Shown in pieces: positions 31-63,620 of a stretch of DNA of 64,000 nt (positions are counted from its first letter, which is position 1; every line of letters starts with the position of its first letter). The stretch comes from a virus. The position numbers and the translations under genes were made by a program. The stretch lies in IMG/VR virus record IMGVR_UViG_3300032288_003949, positions 1-64,000 of that record. The stretch is one strand, 5' to 3'. The notes beneath the pieces are model-generated. The model saw only the letters and a list, made by a program, of their open reading frames with translations, was not told the DNA's origin and made no database searches.

Positions 31-423
31 TTACTCAGCGTCGGTTGCTTCTGCCTCAGCCTTCTCGTCAGCCTTCTTCGACTTCTTGGCCTTCTTTTCG
101 GGCTTGGGAGCAGCCGGTGCCTTACCGAGATCCTCGGCGGCGACAACATCCTTGACAGCGCGGCCATTCTCGTCCTCGTAAACGAAGACGACATGGTCGC
201 CACGGAGCGTTGCGGAGAGAATCTCCGACTCCACTCCGGCAGCCTTCGCCACTGCACCGAGATCCACATCTACATCCTCGGCCTGCTGAAGCTGCGCCTG
301 TCCCAGATCCCCCTGATAGCGGGATCGGGTGCTCTTAATCAGAGCATCAGCGTTGCCTGAGCCACTGCCGATCTGGTCAGCCAGTTCAGCAGCGGCGGCA
401 CTTGCGTCATTTCCTGCGGGCAT
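31..423 (-). CDS. Small Lys/Ala-rich protein downstream of the capsid gene
   Basis: A 130-residue protein, the last gene of the capsid operon visible here, 27 bases after the major capsid protein stop. A strong ribosome site (CAGGAGGTGATGATTC) precedes the ATG. Residues 1-50 are Ala/Asp/Gln-rich, the middle (about 50-100) could be a small folded domain, and the last 30 residues are a Lys/Ala/Glu tail. Its position suggests a head accessory or head-tail connector protein, but I recognise no family. The gene is certain by ribosome site and context; the function is unknown. Confidence 0.8.
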   Translation of the reverse strand: MPAGNDASAAAAELADQIGSGSGNADALIKSTRSRYQGDLGQAQLQQAEDVDVDLGAVAKAAGVESEILSATLRGDHVVFVYEDENGRAVKDVVAAEDLGKAPAAPKPEKKAKKSKKADEKAEAEATDAE

Positions 424-5704: not shown

Positions 5705-6115
5705 TCAGAAGGGAATGTCGTCTGTGGATCCCGACGGTGCGGCTGGTGCCGACACGGGGATATCCGAGGTGTTTCCGTTCTGTGACGCGCCTTCCTTGCC
5801 GCCCATGAATGCGACATTGTCGGCGACGATCTCTACCGCCTGCCGCTTGCCGTCATCTGACTCCCACTCGCGCCAGCGGAGCTTGCCTGTGATGGCAACC
5901 TTGCGGCCCTTGCTCATGTATTGGGCCACATTCTCGCCCTGTGATCCCCAGATGGTCACATCGAAGTAATTCGGTGCGTCCACCCACTGATCGCCCTGTT
6001 TCCTGCGGGCGTTGTTGGCGATCCTGAGCTTGCAAACCGACCCGCCTTGGGTCTGCTTGAGCTCTGGGTCGCGTGTCAGGTTGCCTGTGATGGCAACCGT
6101 GTTTATATCCTGCAT
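5705..6115 (-). CDS. ssb: Single-stranded DNA-binding protein
   Basis: A 136-residue OB-fold SSB. It begins with 'INTVAITGNLTRDPEL', has the 'GRKVAITGKL..REWE..DGKRQ' strand pair, and ends in the acidic protein-interaction tip DDIPF after a Pro/Ala/Ser linker. It coats single-stranded DNA and recruits replication and repair partners. It converges with Ku. Start follows AGGAGGCCCC upstream of the ATG. Confidence 0.93.
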   Translation of the reverse strand: MQDINTVAITGNLTRDPELKQTQGGSVCKLRIANNARRKQGDQWVDAPNYFDVTIWGSQGENVAQYMSKGRKVAITGKLRWREWESDDGKRQAVEIVADNVAFMGGKEGASQNGNTSDIPVSAPAAPSGSTDDIPF

Positions 6116-6167
6116 GGGGCCTCCTTCTGGCCGGTGTTTTCGGGCAGGTTACTACGCGGGGCGGTCG

Positions 6168-6899
6168 CTAGAGCGACTCAATCACATCTATTGCGAGATA
6201 TCCTGTGCTCGGATAGGTCTGGATCACGCCGCTGTCGGTGATCGTGATCTCTGCGTCGTAGATACCTGGAGTGTCAAGGTCGCCTGATGTCCACGGGACT
6301 CGGATGAGCCCTTCGTCGGCATCTACCAGCGAGATTGCTCTCGTCACGCTCTTGCGCGTCGTGTTGGTCGTGGTGATGGCGATGGCTGGGCTGCTGCCGC
6401 CTGTCAGGGAGCTGGTTGCGGTCAGGGTAGGCACATCGGTTCCGGTGAGTGTTCCGCCGAAGGTGATCACCCAAGGCCCGCCAGCGGATCCAGTCACGGT
6501 CAGGTCGCCATAACCGATGGTTCCGAGTTCTTCAAGCTCGTTCTTGACGGTCGTCGCGCTCGCGTTTTTTGCGATGGCATCGGTAGTGTCGTCAAGGAAG
6601 GTAAGCGTGAAGGTTCCGCCTGTCGGGGATCCGCTGATCGTTATGGTCTGCTGCTCATCTTCGCCTTCGCGCTGAATCATGGAGAAGGTTCCGGTCGCGC
6701 CCGTCAGGTCGACGGGGTTAGAGCCCTCGCGCAATTGCAAGTCCAGCGGTTTGTTGTCTCCTGTCTTTACCTGATACATCTGCGTGTCCTTAGTCTCTTG
6801 GAAGATTGCTACAGCGGCCTGCAAGGTGATTGTCGCATGAGTTCGGTCTGGCTCCACGATGTTTGCGGGCTGATTCTCTGGAATGGCGTAGAGCGTCAT
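6168..6899 (-). CDS. Baseplate BppU-like protein with inserted beta module
   Basis: A 243-residue protein. Residues about 41-80 ('MYQVKTGDNKPLDLQLREG...VDLTGATGTFSMI') and 190-240 ('PGIYDAEITITD...YPSTGYLAIDV') look like the two halves of a BppU-type N-terminal immunoglobulin-like domain. Between them is a roughly 90-residue module ('GGTFTLTF....NASATTVKNELEEL.TIGYGDLTV') that also occurs in the long decoration protein at 50067-50756. The start is supported by an ATGA overlap with the gene upstream. It is probably a baseplate or other virion surface protein. Confidence 0.65.
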   Translation of the reverse strand: MTLYAIPENQPANIVEPDRTHATITLQAAVAIFQETKDTQMYQVKTGDNKPLDLQLREGSNPVDLTGATGTFSMIQREGEDEQQTITISGSPTGGTFTLTFLDDTTDAIAKNASATTVKNELEELGTIGYGDLTVTGSAGGPWVITFGGTLTGTDVPTLTATSSLTGGSSPAIAITTTNTTRKSVTRAISLVDADEGLIRVPWTSGDLDTPGIYDAEITITDSGVIQTYPSTGYLAIDVIESL

Positions 6900-10300: not shown

Positions 10301-13300
10301 TCTTGGGGGCCGTCAAGAAGTTGAATCCCTAGACTCTCTGCCACATCGCTGTCGGCGTTCAACACCTGCCCTTGGATATCCTTCGTTGAGACAGGCAGGA
10401 TCGCGGGCGATGCCATGCCCGTGCCTGTTACTGCCCAATGCGGCAGGTCCTGTTCGCCCGTCGGGGTATCGACTACAACGCGCTTACTGGTCGCGGGCTG
10501 CTCGTATCCGATGACATCTTGGCGAAGGTCGCCCCCGCTGGTATCTGGGTCAACTGGTTGGTCGTAGTAGCGTTTAATCGTGCCTGTGGACCCATCGGGA
10601 AGCAGCACCGTTGAGCCAATTGGCCGCTCTGGTGTCGCGGGCGATGCCATGCCCCGAGCTTCTCCCTGCGACTGCAGCAGGTCTTCTCTGACTTCGATGA
10701 TCTGACCAGTTCCGGTGAGCTGGATGTCGTAGTAGTCGATGGGCCGTGAGCCGTCCATCTCGCGGCGGCTGCTGAGCACGATGCCGTCGTTCCCGCTCCA
10801 CGAGACTGCTTCGCCTTCTGCGTAGACCTTCGCCATGGAGATAGGCGACTGCATTCCGTCACCGCTCAGGACGCTTGCCGCCCGTTCAAGCAGGTCTGCC
10901 GCAGTCTCGCTCCGAGCGGTGTCAAGGACAACTCCCCTTTGCAGCTTCTGTCCAATGTCAAGAGCTTCGTTAGGGTTATCAGGGTCAATCTGTTCAAGCA
11001 TGTTGAGAATGACGGTTCCTACCACTTCCCGTCCGTTGCGATCAAGGTTGCCCTGCCGCAGTGCCTGTGCGTATGGGATCTGATTGGGCGACTGCATCGC
11101 ATTGGGAGAAGCCATGCCTGCGGGCTCTGCACCCTGCTCGGTGACCAGTTGGTAAAGGGCGTTGCCTACTACTTCGCTCTTTTCCAGATACTTGTCGTCC
11201 ATCTCTGGCAGGTCTTGGCGACGCTGTATTTCCTGAACGATGGCGGTTACGCCGTCTTGGTCAATCTGCTGTGCGTTGGCCTGTTGCATGGCTACTGCTA
11301 CCAGCTTCTCATTGTTCATGGCACCGAGATTCCGGACTCGGCCTGAGCCAGAGCGGATCGGTGAGACGCCTACTAGATCCTGTCTCTGCGCCCATGCTGG
11401 TGACTGCATGCCGCTGAGTCCCTGCGAGACGGCCTTGTTTCGCTTGCCTGCGGTGCGCCTAAGTGCTCGGTCTGAAATCGGCTTAAATGCAATCTGTTTT
11501 GCTTCAAAGTAAAGCTTGGCGGCGAGCTGTCGATCCTTGGCATTGAGCTGCTCTTGGTTCTTAAGTGCTCTTGCAATTCGCAGGATCTCGTTCTCGTCGC
11601 CCGTGAGTCCTTCCTTGCGGCGCACATTGTCGATCAGTATTCCTGAGCTCTTGTTTGCCAAGCCGCCGAAGCCCTTGGCATATTCGTCGGCATCTCGCTT
11701 GATGATTGCCGCTTTTGTGCGGCCACCGCCTGCGGGCGATGCCATTCCGGTCGGAATATCACCCGCAAGGACTTCATCTATTGCAGCCGTCATCTCGGAA
11801 ACGAGGCGTTGCACCTTTTCTTCGGTGATATCTGGATCTGTCTTCAGCGCCTCAAGATCGGAAAGGATGCCAAGGAATCGTTCTCCCCCTGTCTGGGAGA
11901 CCATCAGGACATTCTTGAGCGGGATAATTTCCGCATCAAGTTCGTCCTTGGCCTGCGCCACGCTTTCAGCTGACGGCTCTAGGCTATTGAGGGTGTTGCG
12001 GGCTCGGTATATGCCCTGAAGGGACTTGTATTCGCGTGGCGGAGCGCCCCATCCTGCGGGCGATGCCATGCCGCCGCTAATGCTCTGGAATTGAACTGAG
12101 CCACCAAAGTCTCCCTTTAGTGCCTTCTCTGCTTCGGTTTGAACCTGCATCGGCTCGTCCCTGAGCGCGATGTTGGAGAAGGCCACGACATACCCTTCAT
12201 CGTCCCTAACTTCTGCGCCGCCGTCGGGATATACGCTGACATAGCCTCCGTCAATTTTCTTCGTCGCGGAGTAGTTACTGCCAGGGGTGTCACGACCGAT
12301 ATCCCATCCGGTTCCGGCCCAAACCTCCAGAGCCCGACCAGCTTCTGGGCTATCCCCGCCAAACTTCTCCGCCATGGCCTCAACCTTTGTCGGGCCGCCT
12401 GCGGGCGATTCCATCATCGGCTCGTCGTCGTAGAGATCGTCCTCTTCGTAGAGATCGTAGTCGTCGTCTTCGTCGGTTTCGATGGTGATGTTGCCGATGC
12501 GGACCTGCCCTGAGTCGTCGTCGAATTCGACGGAGAAGGAGTTATCGAAGGTGACTCGCTGCATGCCACGCGGTGTGGGCTGGCCCTCTCCGGCTGGGAC
12601 CACACCGAGTAGTCCTGCGTCGACCGAGTAGCTCTTGCCGTCTGAGCCTGTGTAGGTGCCATCTCCGTATGCGGTGCCGCTCGCGGTGAACGCTGGGCCT
12701 TGCATGATCTTTGCGCCGTAGTTCAGCTCGTCGAAGCCTTCTGATGAGTCAAGCGCTTCTGTCCATGCGTCGCCATCGAAGGCGTAAGCTGGATCACCGA
12801 CGAAGTAGTCTCCTGCTGGCAGAAGGTCGGATGTCCGGCGCTCAACGATTCGCCGTTGCTCAGGCGTGAGATCGGCGGGCGATGCCATACCTCCCCTCCA
12901 GTTCCGGTCGAACCAGTCATCGACTTGTCGCGGCGAAATCACGCCTTGAGCCTCTGCGTATTCCAGGGCTGCTGCGACAACATGGTTCCACCATTGGTCG
13001 TTGACCATTGCTTCGGCTTGTTGCTCAAAGCTACCTGGGAAGTCGCCGCCATCATCCAGGCCGTAGCCTTCTACAACCGCATCGTCATACAGGATGTTCA
13101 GCACCTCATCCGTACTGCCGAACTCCGGAAGCTCGTCGATCTTCTTCATGACGAAGTCGGCTGTGGAAGAATCGAGCCCGATCATATCGAAGGCTGCTGC
13201 AAACGGGCTTCCCTCAGCTCCGACCGACCGCAACATTTCAGCTGCTTTTTCGGGATTGCGGCCTCGCTTGCCCCATCCATCGTTCAAGACGCTTACAGCG

Positions 13301-43850: not shown

Positions 43851-43923
43851 TGCGGCGTGGGGAAGTTGGTATCCCGCTAGTCTCATCGGCTAGAGATCGC
43901 AGGTTCGAGTCCTGTCGCCGCCA
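43851..43923 (+). tRNA. tRNA with CAT anticodon (Met, or Ile2)
   Basis: Cloverleaf by hand: acceptor TGCGGCG / CGCCGCC, D arm GGGA-AGTTGGTA-TCCC, anticodon stem CTAGT / GCTAG with loop CTCATCG (anticodon CAT), variable loop AGATC, T arm GCAGG-TTCGAGT-CCTGT, discriminator A, CCA not encoded. The first acceptor pair is T1:C72, a mismatch. The three G-C anticodon-stem pairs of initiator tRNA are absent, so this is an elongator Met or lysidine-type Ile tRNA rather than fMet. Confidence 0.85.
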
Positions 43924-43976
43924 TTTCGCTCTACTGTGCGGTTTCCTTCTCCGTGCTACATTCCATCGCAGGTATG

Positions 43977-51659: not shown

Positions 51660-51920
51660 ATGACGGGATGGTGGGATGTGCGGTATCAGGGCGGCGGTCG
51701 GATCTGGGAGGAGTCGCGGGTGCAGGAGTGTGCCGCTCTCGTCCAGCAGCTGTCCGATGCCTTCGGCGAGCTTGGCTGGGAGATGCCTAACGATCTCGCG
51801 GCTGTGCTCGATGGCGGTTCTGTCCATGACAAGATGGAGGCGCGGAATGCCCTTGTGGAGTTGGTCGGGGCGGTTGCCCGCTACCGCTCTCGCATGGATG
51901 TCGCCTATCGGGGTCGCTAG
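51660..51920 (+). CDS. Hypothetical protein
   Basis: An 86-residue protein starting MTGWWDVRYQGG, helical for the rest ('CAALVQQLSDAFGELGW'). Start is set by AGGAGGTTCTC; the stop is the shared CTAG 51917-51920. Unknown function. Confidence 0.7.
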   Translation: MTGWWDVRYQGGGRIWEESRVQECAALVQQLSDAFGELGWEMPNDLAAVLDGGSVHDKMEARNALVELVGAVARYRSRMDVAYRGR

Positions 51921-52162
51921 AAGCGCTTGACAAGTCGGGGCTCGGTGATGCTTTTGAGCTCCGGCCTGTCGATGTGCCTTGGCCAGCGGTTCTCCATCGC
52001 GCCGAACACGGCCCCTAGCAGCAGCAGGGCTTCGTTCAGGTGTTGCATGGCTCCGCTTTCCAGCACTCCGGCGGCTATCGTCGGGTCGCTTTCCATCAGA
52101 TCCACTAGCTCGGCAGCGTCGGCTAGGTCTTGGCTCGGCTTCGGTTCTTTCATCCTGTCCAT
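51917..52162 (-). CDS. Hypothetical helical protein
   Basis: An 81-residue protein with an acidic N-terminal half and a hydrophobic 'LNEALLLLGAVFGAMENRW' helix. Start follows AAAGGAGCAACCG. It is the only minus gene between two plus transcription units. Unknown function. Confidence 0.65.
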   Translation of the reverse strand: MDRMKEPKPSQDLADAAELVDLMESDPTIAAGVLESGAMQHLNEALLLLGAVFGAMENRWPRHIDRPELKSITEPRLVKRF

Positions 52163-52170
52163 CGGTTGCT

Positions 52171-52220
52171 CCTTTCTACCTTCATAGAAGGTCGCTTGCG
52201 CTGGATTGTGTCACCTTCGG
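52171..52220 (-). repeat. Conserved upstream element, copy 1
   Basis: The segment with AGAAGGTCGCTTG...TGTCACCTTCGGTTTC closely matches 58032-58081 (AGAAGGTCGCTTG...TGTCACCTTCGATTTC). Both lie just upstream of a minus-strand gene with a plus promoter on the far side, so this is likely a promoter/operator unit. Confidence 0.55.
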
Positions 52221-52247
52221 TTTCTCGGTGTCGCGCTACACTTCGTC

Positions 52248-52641
52248 GCCGGTCTATGCTAAGATGCCTTTCAGAGTCGCGGACAGGGTTTCACGCAGAG
52301 CGACAGATGGCGAGAGGGTTTAATCACTTGTCCGGCCTTTCGTCCCCCACCATGTTGGGGTATTCACGCGGCGCAACCGCATGGGGTTAGTGCGTCGGGG
52401 TTCGGTGCCACCCACGGAAGGCATCGGGACTAGGTGGCCAACCACCTTCGCCCGACCTGTCGGTAACGCAGATGGGTCTTGGCTGGGGCGGGTCGCTTAC
52501 TTCTCTCGGCGGCCCGCCCTTTTCGTTGCGCTTGTCGCAACCGATGTGTTCGTCACCACGCCGGAGGTTGCGGCGCGGGGCCACATCGCCTGATCCGCTT
52601 CATCGCGCTTCGCATCTAGGCCCGCTTCGGCGGGTCTTTTT
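52248..52641 (+). ncRNA. Candidate structured RNA of 370-390 nt
   Basis: It lies between a phage-type promoter (TGC-TAAGAT at 52257-52265, or an earlier TACACT at 52236-52241) and an intrinsic terminator. Hairpins on paper: GGGCGGG/CCCGCCC (52486-52519), GTTGCG-CTTGT-CGCAAC (52525-52541), AGGTGG-CCAA-CCACCT (52432-52447) inside CGGG/CCCG, CCCCA/TGGGG (52345-52360), long-range CGGACA/TGTCCG (52280-52334) and GATGCCTTTC/GGAAGGCATC (52263-52272 with 52416-52425). No ribosome site or good reading frame is seen. tmRNA, RNase P and group I core motifs are not visible. Class unknown. Confidence 0.6.
52621..52641 (+). terminator. Intrinsic terminator of the candidate RNA
   Basis: CCCGC-TTCG-GCGGG followed by TCTTTTT. 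The T-run is only on the plus strand, which sets the direction of the upstream RNA. Confidence 0.8.
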
Positions 52642-52650
52642 GCGTCTGCG

Positions 52651-54375
52651 CTAGTAGTCCAGCGGGTCGCGGCTAAAGCCAGGGTCGTAGGTTTCGACGA
52701 AGCTCGCGTCTGCGGTCAGGTTCACCACATCTAGCTGGCTCGGCTCCCAGTCGTAGCGGTCTTGGAAATCGTATGTCTCGCCTTCCAGCGCGGTGTCGAC
52801 GCTCTGCTGGAATAGCCAGCACTGCAGGGCCAGCGTGTCGTAGGCTTCGGCGAAGGCATAGTCGTCTGCCCTGACGCTCTGGTATTCGACGGTATGCCCG
52901 AATGCCGTTTCGACGGTCACGCGGCTCATCGCTTGTAGCTGGTCGGTGTAGCCCTTCGGCTTCTCTGTTGGCAGCAGGTTGCGCTGTTGCCTTATCGCGT
53001 CGAATGTGGCATCTAGGATCGCGGTGCGCTTCACGCCTGCGGTTCTCATGTCTGGCTTCGGGTCGAATACCGTCTGGCTGCGGCTGGTGATGAAGTGGGC
53101 GAGGTAGACGCGGCCAGGGAATCGTTCAGCGAATGCTCGGCTCAGGCGTTCTTCGGGGGCGTGGTCGATGCATGCCATGTTCACGCCATACCGCTGCATT
53201 AGCTCTACGAGCATCCCGAAATCGTCCACTTCGCCGATCCACAGGGCCCGCTTGCGGGGTAGCCCTTCGGTCGGCAGGGTGTAGGCGCTTATGCGGACAT
53301 TCAGGGCCCTTACGCTTGCGACATCCACGCCCATCGTCACCAGATCGCACTGCGGCACTTCCATGGCTTCCAGCGGTATGTCGTCGCGGCTGGCTGCGGC
53401 GATGGCTTCATCGCTTAGGCGGTTATCGTCCGGCGCATAGGCTTCCGCGAGGTCTTTGTTGTAGTGGACGGTGATCTCGTTCGGGTTCGTCTTGTTGTGG
53501 GCTTCGATGATCGGTCGCAGGTCTAGGTTCGGGACCACTAGGCGTGGGATGTGGTAGCCCCGTATGTCTCGGTCGGTGTGTTCGGCTACCCATTCGCCCT
53601 TCGCGGGGTTCAGCACCTTGTGGCACTTGGCGCAGACCAGCTCGGCGGTGTCGGTGTCGACATTGGCGGTGTAGGACAGCGTCTGGTGGTCGCCGCAGCC
53701 TTCGCATTTCACCATCCATTGGCGCTGGTCGCTTCGCTCATACAGCGCGTCAATACCGAATCCTGGAATGCTGGGGACGCCTACCCGTCGGATGAGCCCG
53801 TTCTGCGAGCCCGATATTCGGCGTTCAGCGTCGGGGATATTCTCCTGCCGCAGCGTGTCATATTCGTCGAGGCATAGGACATCCGCGTCGACCGCGTCCA
53901 GATCGTCTTTCGATTCGCTTCCACGGGCGTAAAGCCAGCCGAGCCCGATCTGTTTCAGGCCTTTGTTGTTCACATAGCCCTGCGGGATCCGCTCACGGAG
54001 GTAGGGCGAGCCCATGATGGCGGCCTTTATCCGTGCGTCGGCGAAGTCATACATCTGCTGGCGCTTCGGGAAGATATACAAGGCGTTCTTCCTGCCCGTG
54101 TCAGCGTGGTAGAGGGCCCATCTCAGGAGGTAGGTGCTCACGCCTACCTGCGTCGCCTTCTTTATCACGATCTCGCGGTCATCGGCCCCTGATTGGTCGT
54201 ATAGCTCGCGCTGGAAAGGGAATCGGTCGAAGTCCAGGGTTCCGGCCTTCGGCTCCGGCACCTGTAGGGCCCAATCGTGGAAGCTCTGCTTCTGGCCGGT
54301 CAGCTCCGCATATTTCTGCCGTAGCAGCTCGCCAAATGCGTCTGCCGGTGCCATGTTCGCTGTCGGGTCTTCCAT
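52651..54375 (-). CDS. terL: Terminase large subunit (GpA-like)
   Basis: A 574-residue DNA packaging motor and nuclease of the lambda GpA type. ATPase: 'FQRELYD' adenine motif, Walker-A-like 'KKATQVGVSTYLLRW' (near residue 74), Walker B 'VDADVLCLDEYD'. A zinc ribbon follows ('CEGCGDHQ...CAKCHK') as in GpA proteins. The nuclease domain begins at 'LVTMGVDVAS' with later acidic residues such as 'RADDYAFAEAYD'. Full length. It is the anchor of the virion gene order. Confidence 0.92.
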   Translation of the reverse strand: MEDPTANMAPADAFGELLRQKYAELTGQKQSFHDWALQVPEPKAGTLDFDRFPFQRELYDQSGADDREIVIKKATQVGVSTYLLRWALYHADTGRKNALYIFPKRQQMYDFADARIKAAIMGSPYLRERIPQGYVNNKGLKQIGLGWLYARGSESKDDLDAVDADVLCLDEYDTLRQENIPDAERRISGSQNGLIRRVGVPSIPGFGIDALYERSDQRQWMVKCEGCGDHQTLSYTANVDTDTAELVCAKCHKVLNPAKGEWVAEHTDRDIRGYHIPRLVVPNLDLRPIIEAHNKTNPNEITVHYNKDLAEAYAPDDNRLSDEAIAAASRDDIPLEAMEVPQCDLVTMGVDVASVRALNVRISAYTLPTEGLPRKRALWIGEVDDFGMLVELMQRYGVNMACIDHAPEERLSRAFAERFPGRVYLAHFITSRSQTVFDPKPDMRTAGVKRTAILDATFDAIRQQRNLLPTEKPKGYTDQLQAMSRVTVETAFGHTVEYQSVRADDYAFAEAYDTLALQCWLFQQSVDTALEGETYDFQDRYDWEPSQLDVVNLTADASFVETYDPGFSRDPLDY

Positions 54376-57996: not shown

Positions 57997-58141
57997 GTGA
58001 TTGCTCCTTCTCGGTCGGGTTTCTGTCGCTCTGTCCTATTAAGAAGGTCGCTTGTGGTCGACTTTGTCACCTTCGATTTCGGTGGCTTTTGTCGGCTGGA
58101 TCTGCTACGCTTGTTAGCGCAATCCGACGAGGAGGTATCTG
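57997..58141. promoter_or_regulatory. Divergent regulatory region, repeat copy 2
   Basis: Minus side: element 58032-58081 nearly identical to that at 52171-52220. Plus side: TGC-TACGCT (58103-58111), then TTAGCGCAATCCGACGAGGAGG for the gene at 58142. Confidence 0.6.
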
Positions 58142-63255: not shown

Positions 63256-63360
63256 GGTGTTCTCCTTCTCTCTTGGGTTGCTCCAAGAGCATACCACATC
63301 GCGCTACATTTCGTCGCTCGTCTATGCTACAGTGGTTGAGCAATCAACGAGAGGAGAATC
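63256..63360. promoter_or_regulatory. Divergent promoters
   Basis: Minus: extended -10 TGG-TATGCT (63288-63296). Plus: TGC-TACAGT (63325-63333), then GAGCAATCAACGAGAGGAG. The stretch CGCGCTACATTTCGTCGC..GTCTATGCTA closely matches the promoter region of the candidate RNA at 52231-52261. Confidence 0.65.
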
Positions 63361-63570
63361 ATGAGGGACGATGGTGGATTCAACCGCGACGAGGTGATCA
63401 GCACCAACCTGCGGCTCACCCAAGCGCAGGCCGAGGTCTTGGTCACGGCGCTCCGCCGCCACGAGCACACTTGCCGCGAGCTTTACACGGCGGACGGCGA
63501 TGACGAGGCTGAGGTGGCTGGCGGGATTCTGGCCTTCGTGTATGCCGCTCGCGAGGGCTACGGCTGCTAG
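63361..63570 (+). CDS. Hypothetical small helical protein
   Basis: A 69-residue protein ('LRLTQAQAEVLVTALRRHEHTCRELY'), helical and acidic. Single-gene plus unit closed by a terminator at 63596-63620. Function unknown. Confidence 0.7.
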   Translation: MRDDGGFNRDEVISTNLRLTQAQAEVLVTALRRHEHTCRELYTADGDDEAEVAGGILAFVYAAREGYGC

Positions 63571-63595
63571 GTAGCCACCTTTTCGCTTCACTTTC

Positions 63596-63620
63596 GGGTC
63601 GCCTTCGGGCGGCCCGTTTG
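63596..63620 (+). terminator. Plus-strand terminator
   Basis: GGGTCGCC-TTCG-GGCGGCCC (8-bp stem with one G-T pair) followed by GTTTG. Confidence 0.65.

What the first reader, a model, noticed from the sequence alone, without database searches (positions are those of the whole stretch)
52248..52641. Structured RNA of about 370-390 nt between a phage promoter and a terminator
At least five perfect hairpins and two long-range helices lie between a TGC-TAAGAT promoter and CCCGCTTCGGCGGG-TCTTTTT. No credible reading frame or ribosome site is present. It sits beside terminase, where packaging-related RNA is conceivable. It does not look like tmRNA, RNase P or a group I intron.
Basis: partly seen in the sequence, partly recalled or inferred. 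Interest (0 to 1): 0.8.

Follow-up and report, generated by a model that had tools for sequence, protein, structure and literature searches.

The report
ORF-less phage transcript beside terminase
The stretch next to the phage's DNA-packaging gene is most likely a short, unremarkably folded transcript with its own promoter and terminator, followed by the broken tail of a small gene, and not one large new structured RNA.

Summary
The promoter, the final terminator and the lack of a credible reading frame are real; the single 370-390 nt structured RNA is not supported. The promoter (52232-52265) is a phage-specific element: a near copy at 63300 drives an ordinary 69-aa gene. The strongest "hairpin" (52486-52519, then TTTTCGTT) is a terminator: its GGGTCGC...GCGGCCC signature occurs only twice in the 80.9-kb record, the other copy ending that same 69-aa gene. 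So the transcript probably runs ~52272-52525 (~250 nt). The remaining ~110 nt are the last 20 codons of a small gene (LVATDVFVTTPEVAARGHIA*), intact in two other phages, plus its terminator. Before the internal terminator the RNA folds no better than shuffles (z -0.76). The whole stretch (z -2.7) is matched by about 7% of random stretches of this phage. No relative was found in Rfam, annotated phages, plasmids, or pattern scans of IMG/VR and GTDB genomes. The nearest relative by terminase (77% aa) has an unrelated ORF-less promoter-terminator unit in the same place; more distant ones have genes there. Packaging RNA is unlikely because the terminase is GpA-type with a nuclease domain. Most likely an ORF-less gene cassette, possibly an untested sRNA, fused to a gene relic.

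The parts
52232..52265 (+). Phage promoter: TACACT (weak -35), 17-bp spacer, extended -10 TGC-TAAGAT; start of transcription expected near 52272
   Evidence: Near copy at 63300 before a 69-aa gene with a ribosome site; weaker copies at 43952 and in L003 before genes. The -35 is poor by the sigma-70 consensus.
52272..52485 (+). Body of the ORF-less transcript
   Evidence: No coding signal; fold z -0.76, 19% of shuffles fold as well; no relatives
52486..52527 (+). Internal intrinsic terminator: 11-bp stem, 12-nt loop, tail TTTTCGTT
   Evidence: GGGTCGC...GCGGCCC occurs only here and in the terminator at 63595 of the 69-aa gene that carries the same promoter
52531..52593 (+). Gene relic: last 20 codons (LVATDVFVTTPEVAARGHIA, stop TGA) of a small phage gene; N-terminal part absent from the record
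   Evidence: 15 of 16 residues identical to a 74-aa ORF of L007 (43 of 45 nt, both changes synonymous) and 14 of 19 to an 80-aa ORF of L003; no N-terminal part found by tblastn
52618..52641 (+). Second intrinsic terminator (8-bp stem, TTCG loop, TTTTT)
51917..52162 (-). Divergent 81-aa gene sharing the intergenic promoter region
   Evidence: Coding score strongly positive in this frame
52651..54375 (-). Terminase large subunit (GpA ATPase and nuclease), convergent with the transcript
   Evidence: PHROG 675 E 6.5e-91; PF05876 E 2.9e-28, PF20454 E 1.1e-5
63300..63617 (+). Reference cassette: same promoter, ribosome site, 69-aa ORF 63361-63570, same terminator signature

Best explanation
The locus is an ORF-less copy of the phage's standard small-gene cassette (promoter, insert, terminator), joined by a rearrangement to the 3' tail of a neighbouring small gene. 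RNA polymerase should start near 52272 and stop mainly at 52520-52527, giving a transcript of about 250 nt with no translated frame; read-through would reach the second terminator at about 52641. The transcript is either a by-product of a cassette that lost its gene, which I think likelier, or a regulatory RNA of unknown target. It does not depend on a compact fold and is not a packaging RNA. Shown: shared promoter and terminator sequences, lack of coding signal, gene relic, ordinary folding. Inferred: transcription itself, the start and stop points, and the loss of function.
For: Promoter element shared with the 69-aa gene cassette at 63300 and in weaker form with 43952 and L003. Terminator signature found exactly twice in the record, here and after that same 69-aa gene. 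Gene tail 52531-52593 matched by intact ORFs in L007 and L003, the latter fetched through the terminase and not through this segment. No N-terminal part in the record. Non-coding body. Fold z -0.76 before the internal terminator and about 7% background frequency of the whole-stretch z. No relatives found. In L003 the same slot holds a promoter-terminator unit with no evident frame and no significant similarity; in L004-L006 it holds genes.
Against: Two related phages both having an ORF-less promoter-terminator unit at this spot hints at a kept function, whatever the sequence. A weak collinear alignment with the L003 unit (P about 0.10) leaves distant homology open. The gene tail is very well preserved (95.6% DNA identity to L007 over 45 nt), which is odd for an old relic. 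No expression data exist here.
Confidence: 0.62

Rival explanations
1. A functional phage small RNA of about 250 nt, strongly transcribed during infection, that acts by base pairing or protein binding, comparable in kind to the abundant non-coding transcripts of mycobacteriophages D29, L5 and StarStuff.
For: Own promoter and terminator, no frame; L003 has an ORF-less unit in the same slot. Such phage transcripts exist and can be very abundant (PMC5712189).
Against: No conservation found; no better-than-shuffled pairing with start regions of 52 predicted phage genes; no excess structure.
Confidence: 0.23
2. A single structured RNA of about 370-390 nt spanning both terminators, with long-range helices, a new class.
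For: MFE fold of the whole closes a multibranch structure, z -2.7, 0.7-1% of shuffles fold as well.
Against: About 7% of random stretches of this phage do as well; scrambling only the internal terminator lowers z to about -1.9 and the body alone scores -0.76; the 3' third contains a gene relic; no homologues.
Confidence: 0.07
3. A short translated leader or small protein (TTG at 52328, 20 aa, or ATG at 52381, 70 aa whose last 20 residues match the conserved tail).
For: GAGAGG ten bases before TTG 52328; the 52381 frame has near-neutral codon scores towards its 3' end and ends in the conserved tail.
Against: The similarity of that patch to known leaders is not significant (P 0.26); no ribosome site before 52381; a phage-type terminator lies inside the frame; no family match.
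Confidence: 0.06
4. A packaging RNA comparable to phi29 pRNA.
For: Only position beside the terminase gene.
Against: GpA-type terminase with a detectable nuclease domain, whereas pRNA presence goes with nuclease-less phi29-type ATPases (PMC7672431); the relatives' slot holds other things.
Confidence: 0.02

Closest known systems
Abundant non-coding transcripts of mycobacteriophages D29, L5 and StarStuff (PMC5712189)
   Same: Phage transcript with its own promoter and without a credible frame; function largely unknown
   Different: Those are seen by RNA-seq and Northern blot and similar in several phages; here transcription is only predicted and no homologue is known. Right genome end there, beside terminase here.
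Small-gene cassette at window 63300-63617 of the same phage
   Same: Promoter 28 of 34 letters identical; terminator signature GGGTCGC...GCGGCCC followed by a T-rich tail
   Different: Has a ribosome site and a 69-aa ORF; the present unit has neither
phi29 pRNA
   Same: Phage RNA encoded in a genome with a packaging ATPase
   Different: No Rfam match, different terminase type, no conservation
Small phage protein of L007 (74 aa) and L003 (80 aa); weak HTH_67 similarity in L003 only, below cut-off
   Same: The C-terminal 16-20 residues are encoded at 52531-52593
   Different: The first two thirds of the gene are missing in the window

Membership tests
Large structured RNA class (of the GOLLD, ROOL or OLE kind, or any Rfam family) | Match to a covariance model | tested here: not met
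   No match at gathering score; best weak match rsmX 25 bits against a cut-off of 56
Large structured RNA class (of the GOLLD, ROOL or OLE kind, or any Rfam family) | Folding stability clearly above genomic background | tested here: not met
   z -2.7 for the whole but 7.5% of random stretches reach -2.5; body z -0.76
Large structured RNA class (of the GOLLD, ROOL or OLE kind, or any Rfam family) | Covariation in homologues | not testable with these tools
   No homologue found; forced alignment with the L003 unit is not significant
Phage small RNA / ORF-less transcription unit | Promoter and intrinsic terminator | tested here: met
   both repeated in a genuine gene cassette of the same phage
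Phage small RNA / ORF-less transcription unit | No translated frame | tested here: met
   Codon scores without coding signal in the transcript body; no convincing ribosome site
Phage small RNA / ORF-less transcription unit | Detected transcript | not testable with these tools
   No expression data
phi29-type packaging RNA | Rfam similarity, and phi29-type ATPase without nuclease | tested here: not met
tmRNA, RNase P RNA, group I intron | Rfam or ARAGORN match | tested here: not met
Small phage gene of the L003/L007 type (pseudogene) | Conserved C-terminal motif TDVFVTTP with stop shortly after | tested here: met
Small phage gene of the L003/L007 type (pseudogene) | Intact N-terminal part | tested here: not met
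   tblastn of both full proteins against the whole record finds only the tail

The most novel reading that the evidence does not exclude
A kept, positionally conserved but fast-evolving phage small RNA encoded against the terminase 3' end in this phage lineage (window and L003), whose function depends on being transcribed or on short pairing and not on a conserved fold.
Probability: 0.13. Interest if true: 0.5.

Novelty: new member of a known kind. Interest (0 to 1): 0.2.

Why it matters
It shows how a promoter, a terminator hairpin and a gene relic lined up end to end can look like one large structured RNA in GC-rich phage DNA. If the transcript is real, it adds one more phage non-coding RNA without known function, and the L003 comparison gives a simple test of whether such units are kept by position.

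Tried and rejected
Rfam at gathering and relaxed thresholds: nothing above cut-off. DNA similarity in phages and plasmids: only chance matches. Pattern scans of IMG/VR and GTDB genomes with translations of the RNA used as probes: only the coding tail matched; L008 is a short chance-like match. These scans need exact 24-nt degenerate words and can miss all but close homologues. Terminase relatives: ten loci in the wider search; blastn of the RNA against all fetched loci found no copy. Homology between the RNA and the L003 unit (P about 0.10) or another L003 non-coding stretch (P 0.97): not supported. Decay of the 63361 gene (P 0.065) or of a standard leader (P 0.26 or more): not supported. Antisense pairing to phage gene starts: no better than shuffles. 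Trans-located 5' part of the broken gene: not in the record. Literature search for terminase-linked phage RNAs gave nothing closer than the D29/L5 transcripts.

Full report
Where it lies. The window is part of an 80,925-base virus record. The stretch lies between an 81-aa gene on the minus strand (51917-52162) and the terminase large subunit, also on the minus strand (52651-54375), so its transcript would run head-on against the end of the terminase gene.

Promoter. The TGC-TAAGAT -10 is real and belongs to a longer element. CGCGCTACA(C/T)TTCGTCGC..GTCTATGCTA is found in full twice in the record, at 52232 and 63300, and in weaker form at 43952 and at several places in the related contig L003. 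The copies at 63300 and 43952 stand directly before a ribosome site and an ATG. By the generic sigma-70 consensus the -35 is too weak to be called. The repetition is the evidence.

Internal terminator. The strongest hairpin of the 'RNA', GGGCGGGTCGC-(12 nt)-GCGGCCCGCCC at 52486-52519, is followed by TTTTCGTT. The core GGGTCGC...GCGGCCC occurs only twice in the record: here, and as the terminator of the 69-aa gene at 63361-63570, the same gene that carries the near copy of the promoter. The unit 52232-52527 is therefore bounded like that cassette.

Gene relic. 52531-52593 reads LVATDVFVTTPEVAARGHIA and a stop. In L007 a 74-aa ORF ends ...LIATDVFVTTPEVAAR..., with 43 of 45 bases identical and both differences synonymous. 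L007 was fetched with patterns from this very frame, so that match alone could be a selection effect. L003, however, was fetched through the terminase and independently encodes ...LVETDVFVTTPAVAEHGSI... in an 80-aa ORF with a ribosome site and its own promoter. The motif TDVFVTTP is invariant in all three. The N-terminal two thirds of the protein are nowhere in the window's record. This part of the 'RNA' is thus the tail of a broken gene.

Coding potential of the rest. Codon scores trained on genes of this phage are negative in every + frame from about 52200 to 52450, and no minus frame there reaches the level of real genes. There is no convincing ribosome site. The best candidate, TTG at 52328 after GAGAGG, gives only 20 aa, and the resemblance of that patch to genuine leaders is not significant.

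Structure. The whole stretch folds at -169 to -176 kcal/mol, z -2.6 to -2.7. Three checks take most of the weight from this. Of 120 random 374-nt stretches of the same record (12 shuffles each), 7.5% have z of -2.5 or lower. The body before the internal terminator has z -0.76. Scrambling only the internal terminator brings the whole to about -1.9. Strict hairpins of 5 or more pairs number 5 against 2.8 expected (P about 0.10). A 200-nt scan completed only for about the first 30 kb of the record found other places with far lower z.

Relatives. No Rfam family, no DNA similarity in 50,697 phage and 72,556 plasmid records, nothing by pattern scans of IMG/VR and GTDB genomes (these reach only close relatives). 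The nearest relative by terminase (L003, 77% aa) has at the same place and on the same strand a consensus promoter, about 170 nt without a frame and a terminator, with fold z -1.1 and no significant alignment with the window unit (P about 0.10). In L004-L006 the terminase is followed by genes.

Function. No pairing with phage gene starts beyond shuffles. A packaging role is not favoured: the terminase is of the GpA type with a detectable nuclease domain, while the authors of PMC7672431 note that pRNA goes together with loss of the nuclease. The nearest known kind is the abundant ORF-less transcript of mycobacteriophages D29, L5 and StarStuff (PMC5712189), as an analogy only; the host of this phage was not determined.

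Verdict. A predicted promoter-terminator unit without a gene, about 250 nt, joined to a gene relic; not shown to be a structured RNA. Low interest unless a transcript with an effect is found.

Noticed in passing
L007 about 5755-5800, 6070-6130, 6405-6451: Mini tRNA-like elements (acceptor-like stem, short hairpin, T-arm with GGTTCGAGTCC) appear repeatedly between small genes; one gives a weak mascRNA-menRNA match (29 bits, E 0.058). They could be RNase P/Z processing signals between phage genes.
   Followed up: no
L003 7725-7897 (-): ORF-less unit of about 170 nt with promoter TTGACT-17-TACAGT and a terminator, at the 3' end of terminase; same slot as the window unit but without significant sequence similarity.
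   Followed up: partly
L003 9540-9670 and 4360-4513: Pairs of promoter-like sequences facing each other about 100-130 bp apart over related non-coding sequence (CCGGAGAnC...CCCCCT), possible overlapping antisense transcripts.
   Followed up: no
window 52186-52224 and 58042-58080: 85% identical 39-nt repeat in two divergent intergenic regions, probably shared divergent promoter parts.
   Followed up: partly
window 201-400 (-), 5901-6100 (+), 11101-11300 (+): Much stronger folding than shuffles (z about -7, only 20 shuffles each); gene content there was not examined.
   Followed up: no
window 43851-43923 (+): Phage tRNA-Met (CAT), directly upstream of another copy of the phage promoter at 43952.
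   Followed up: no
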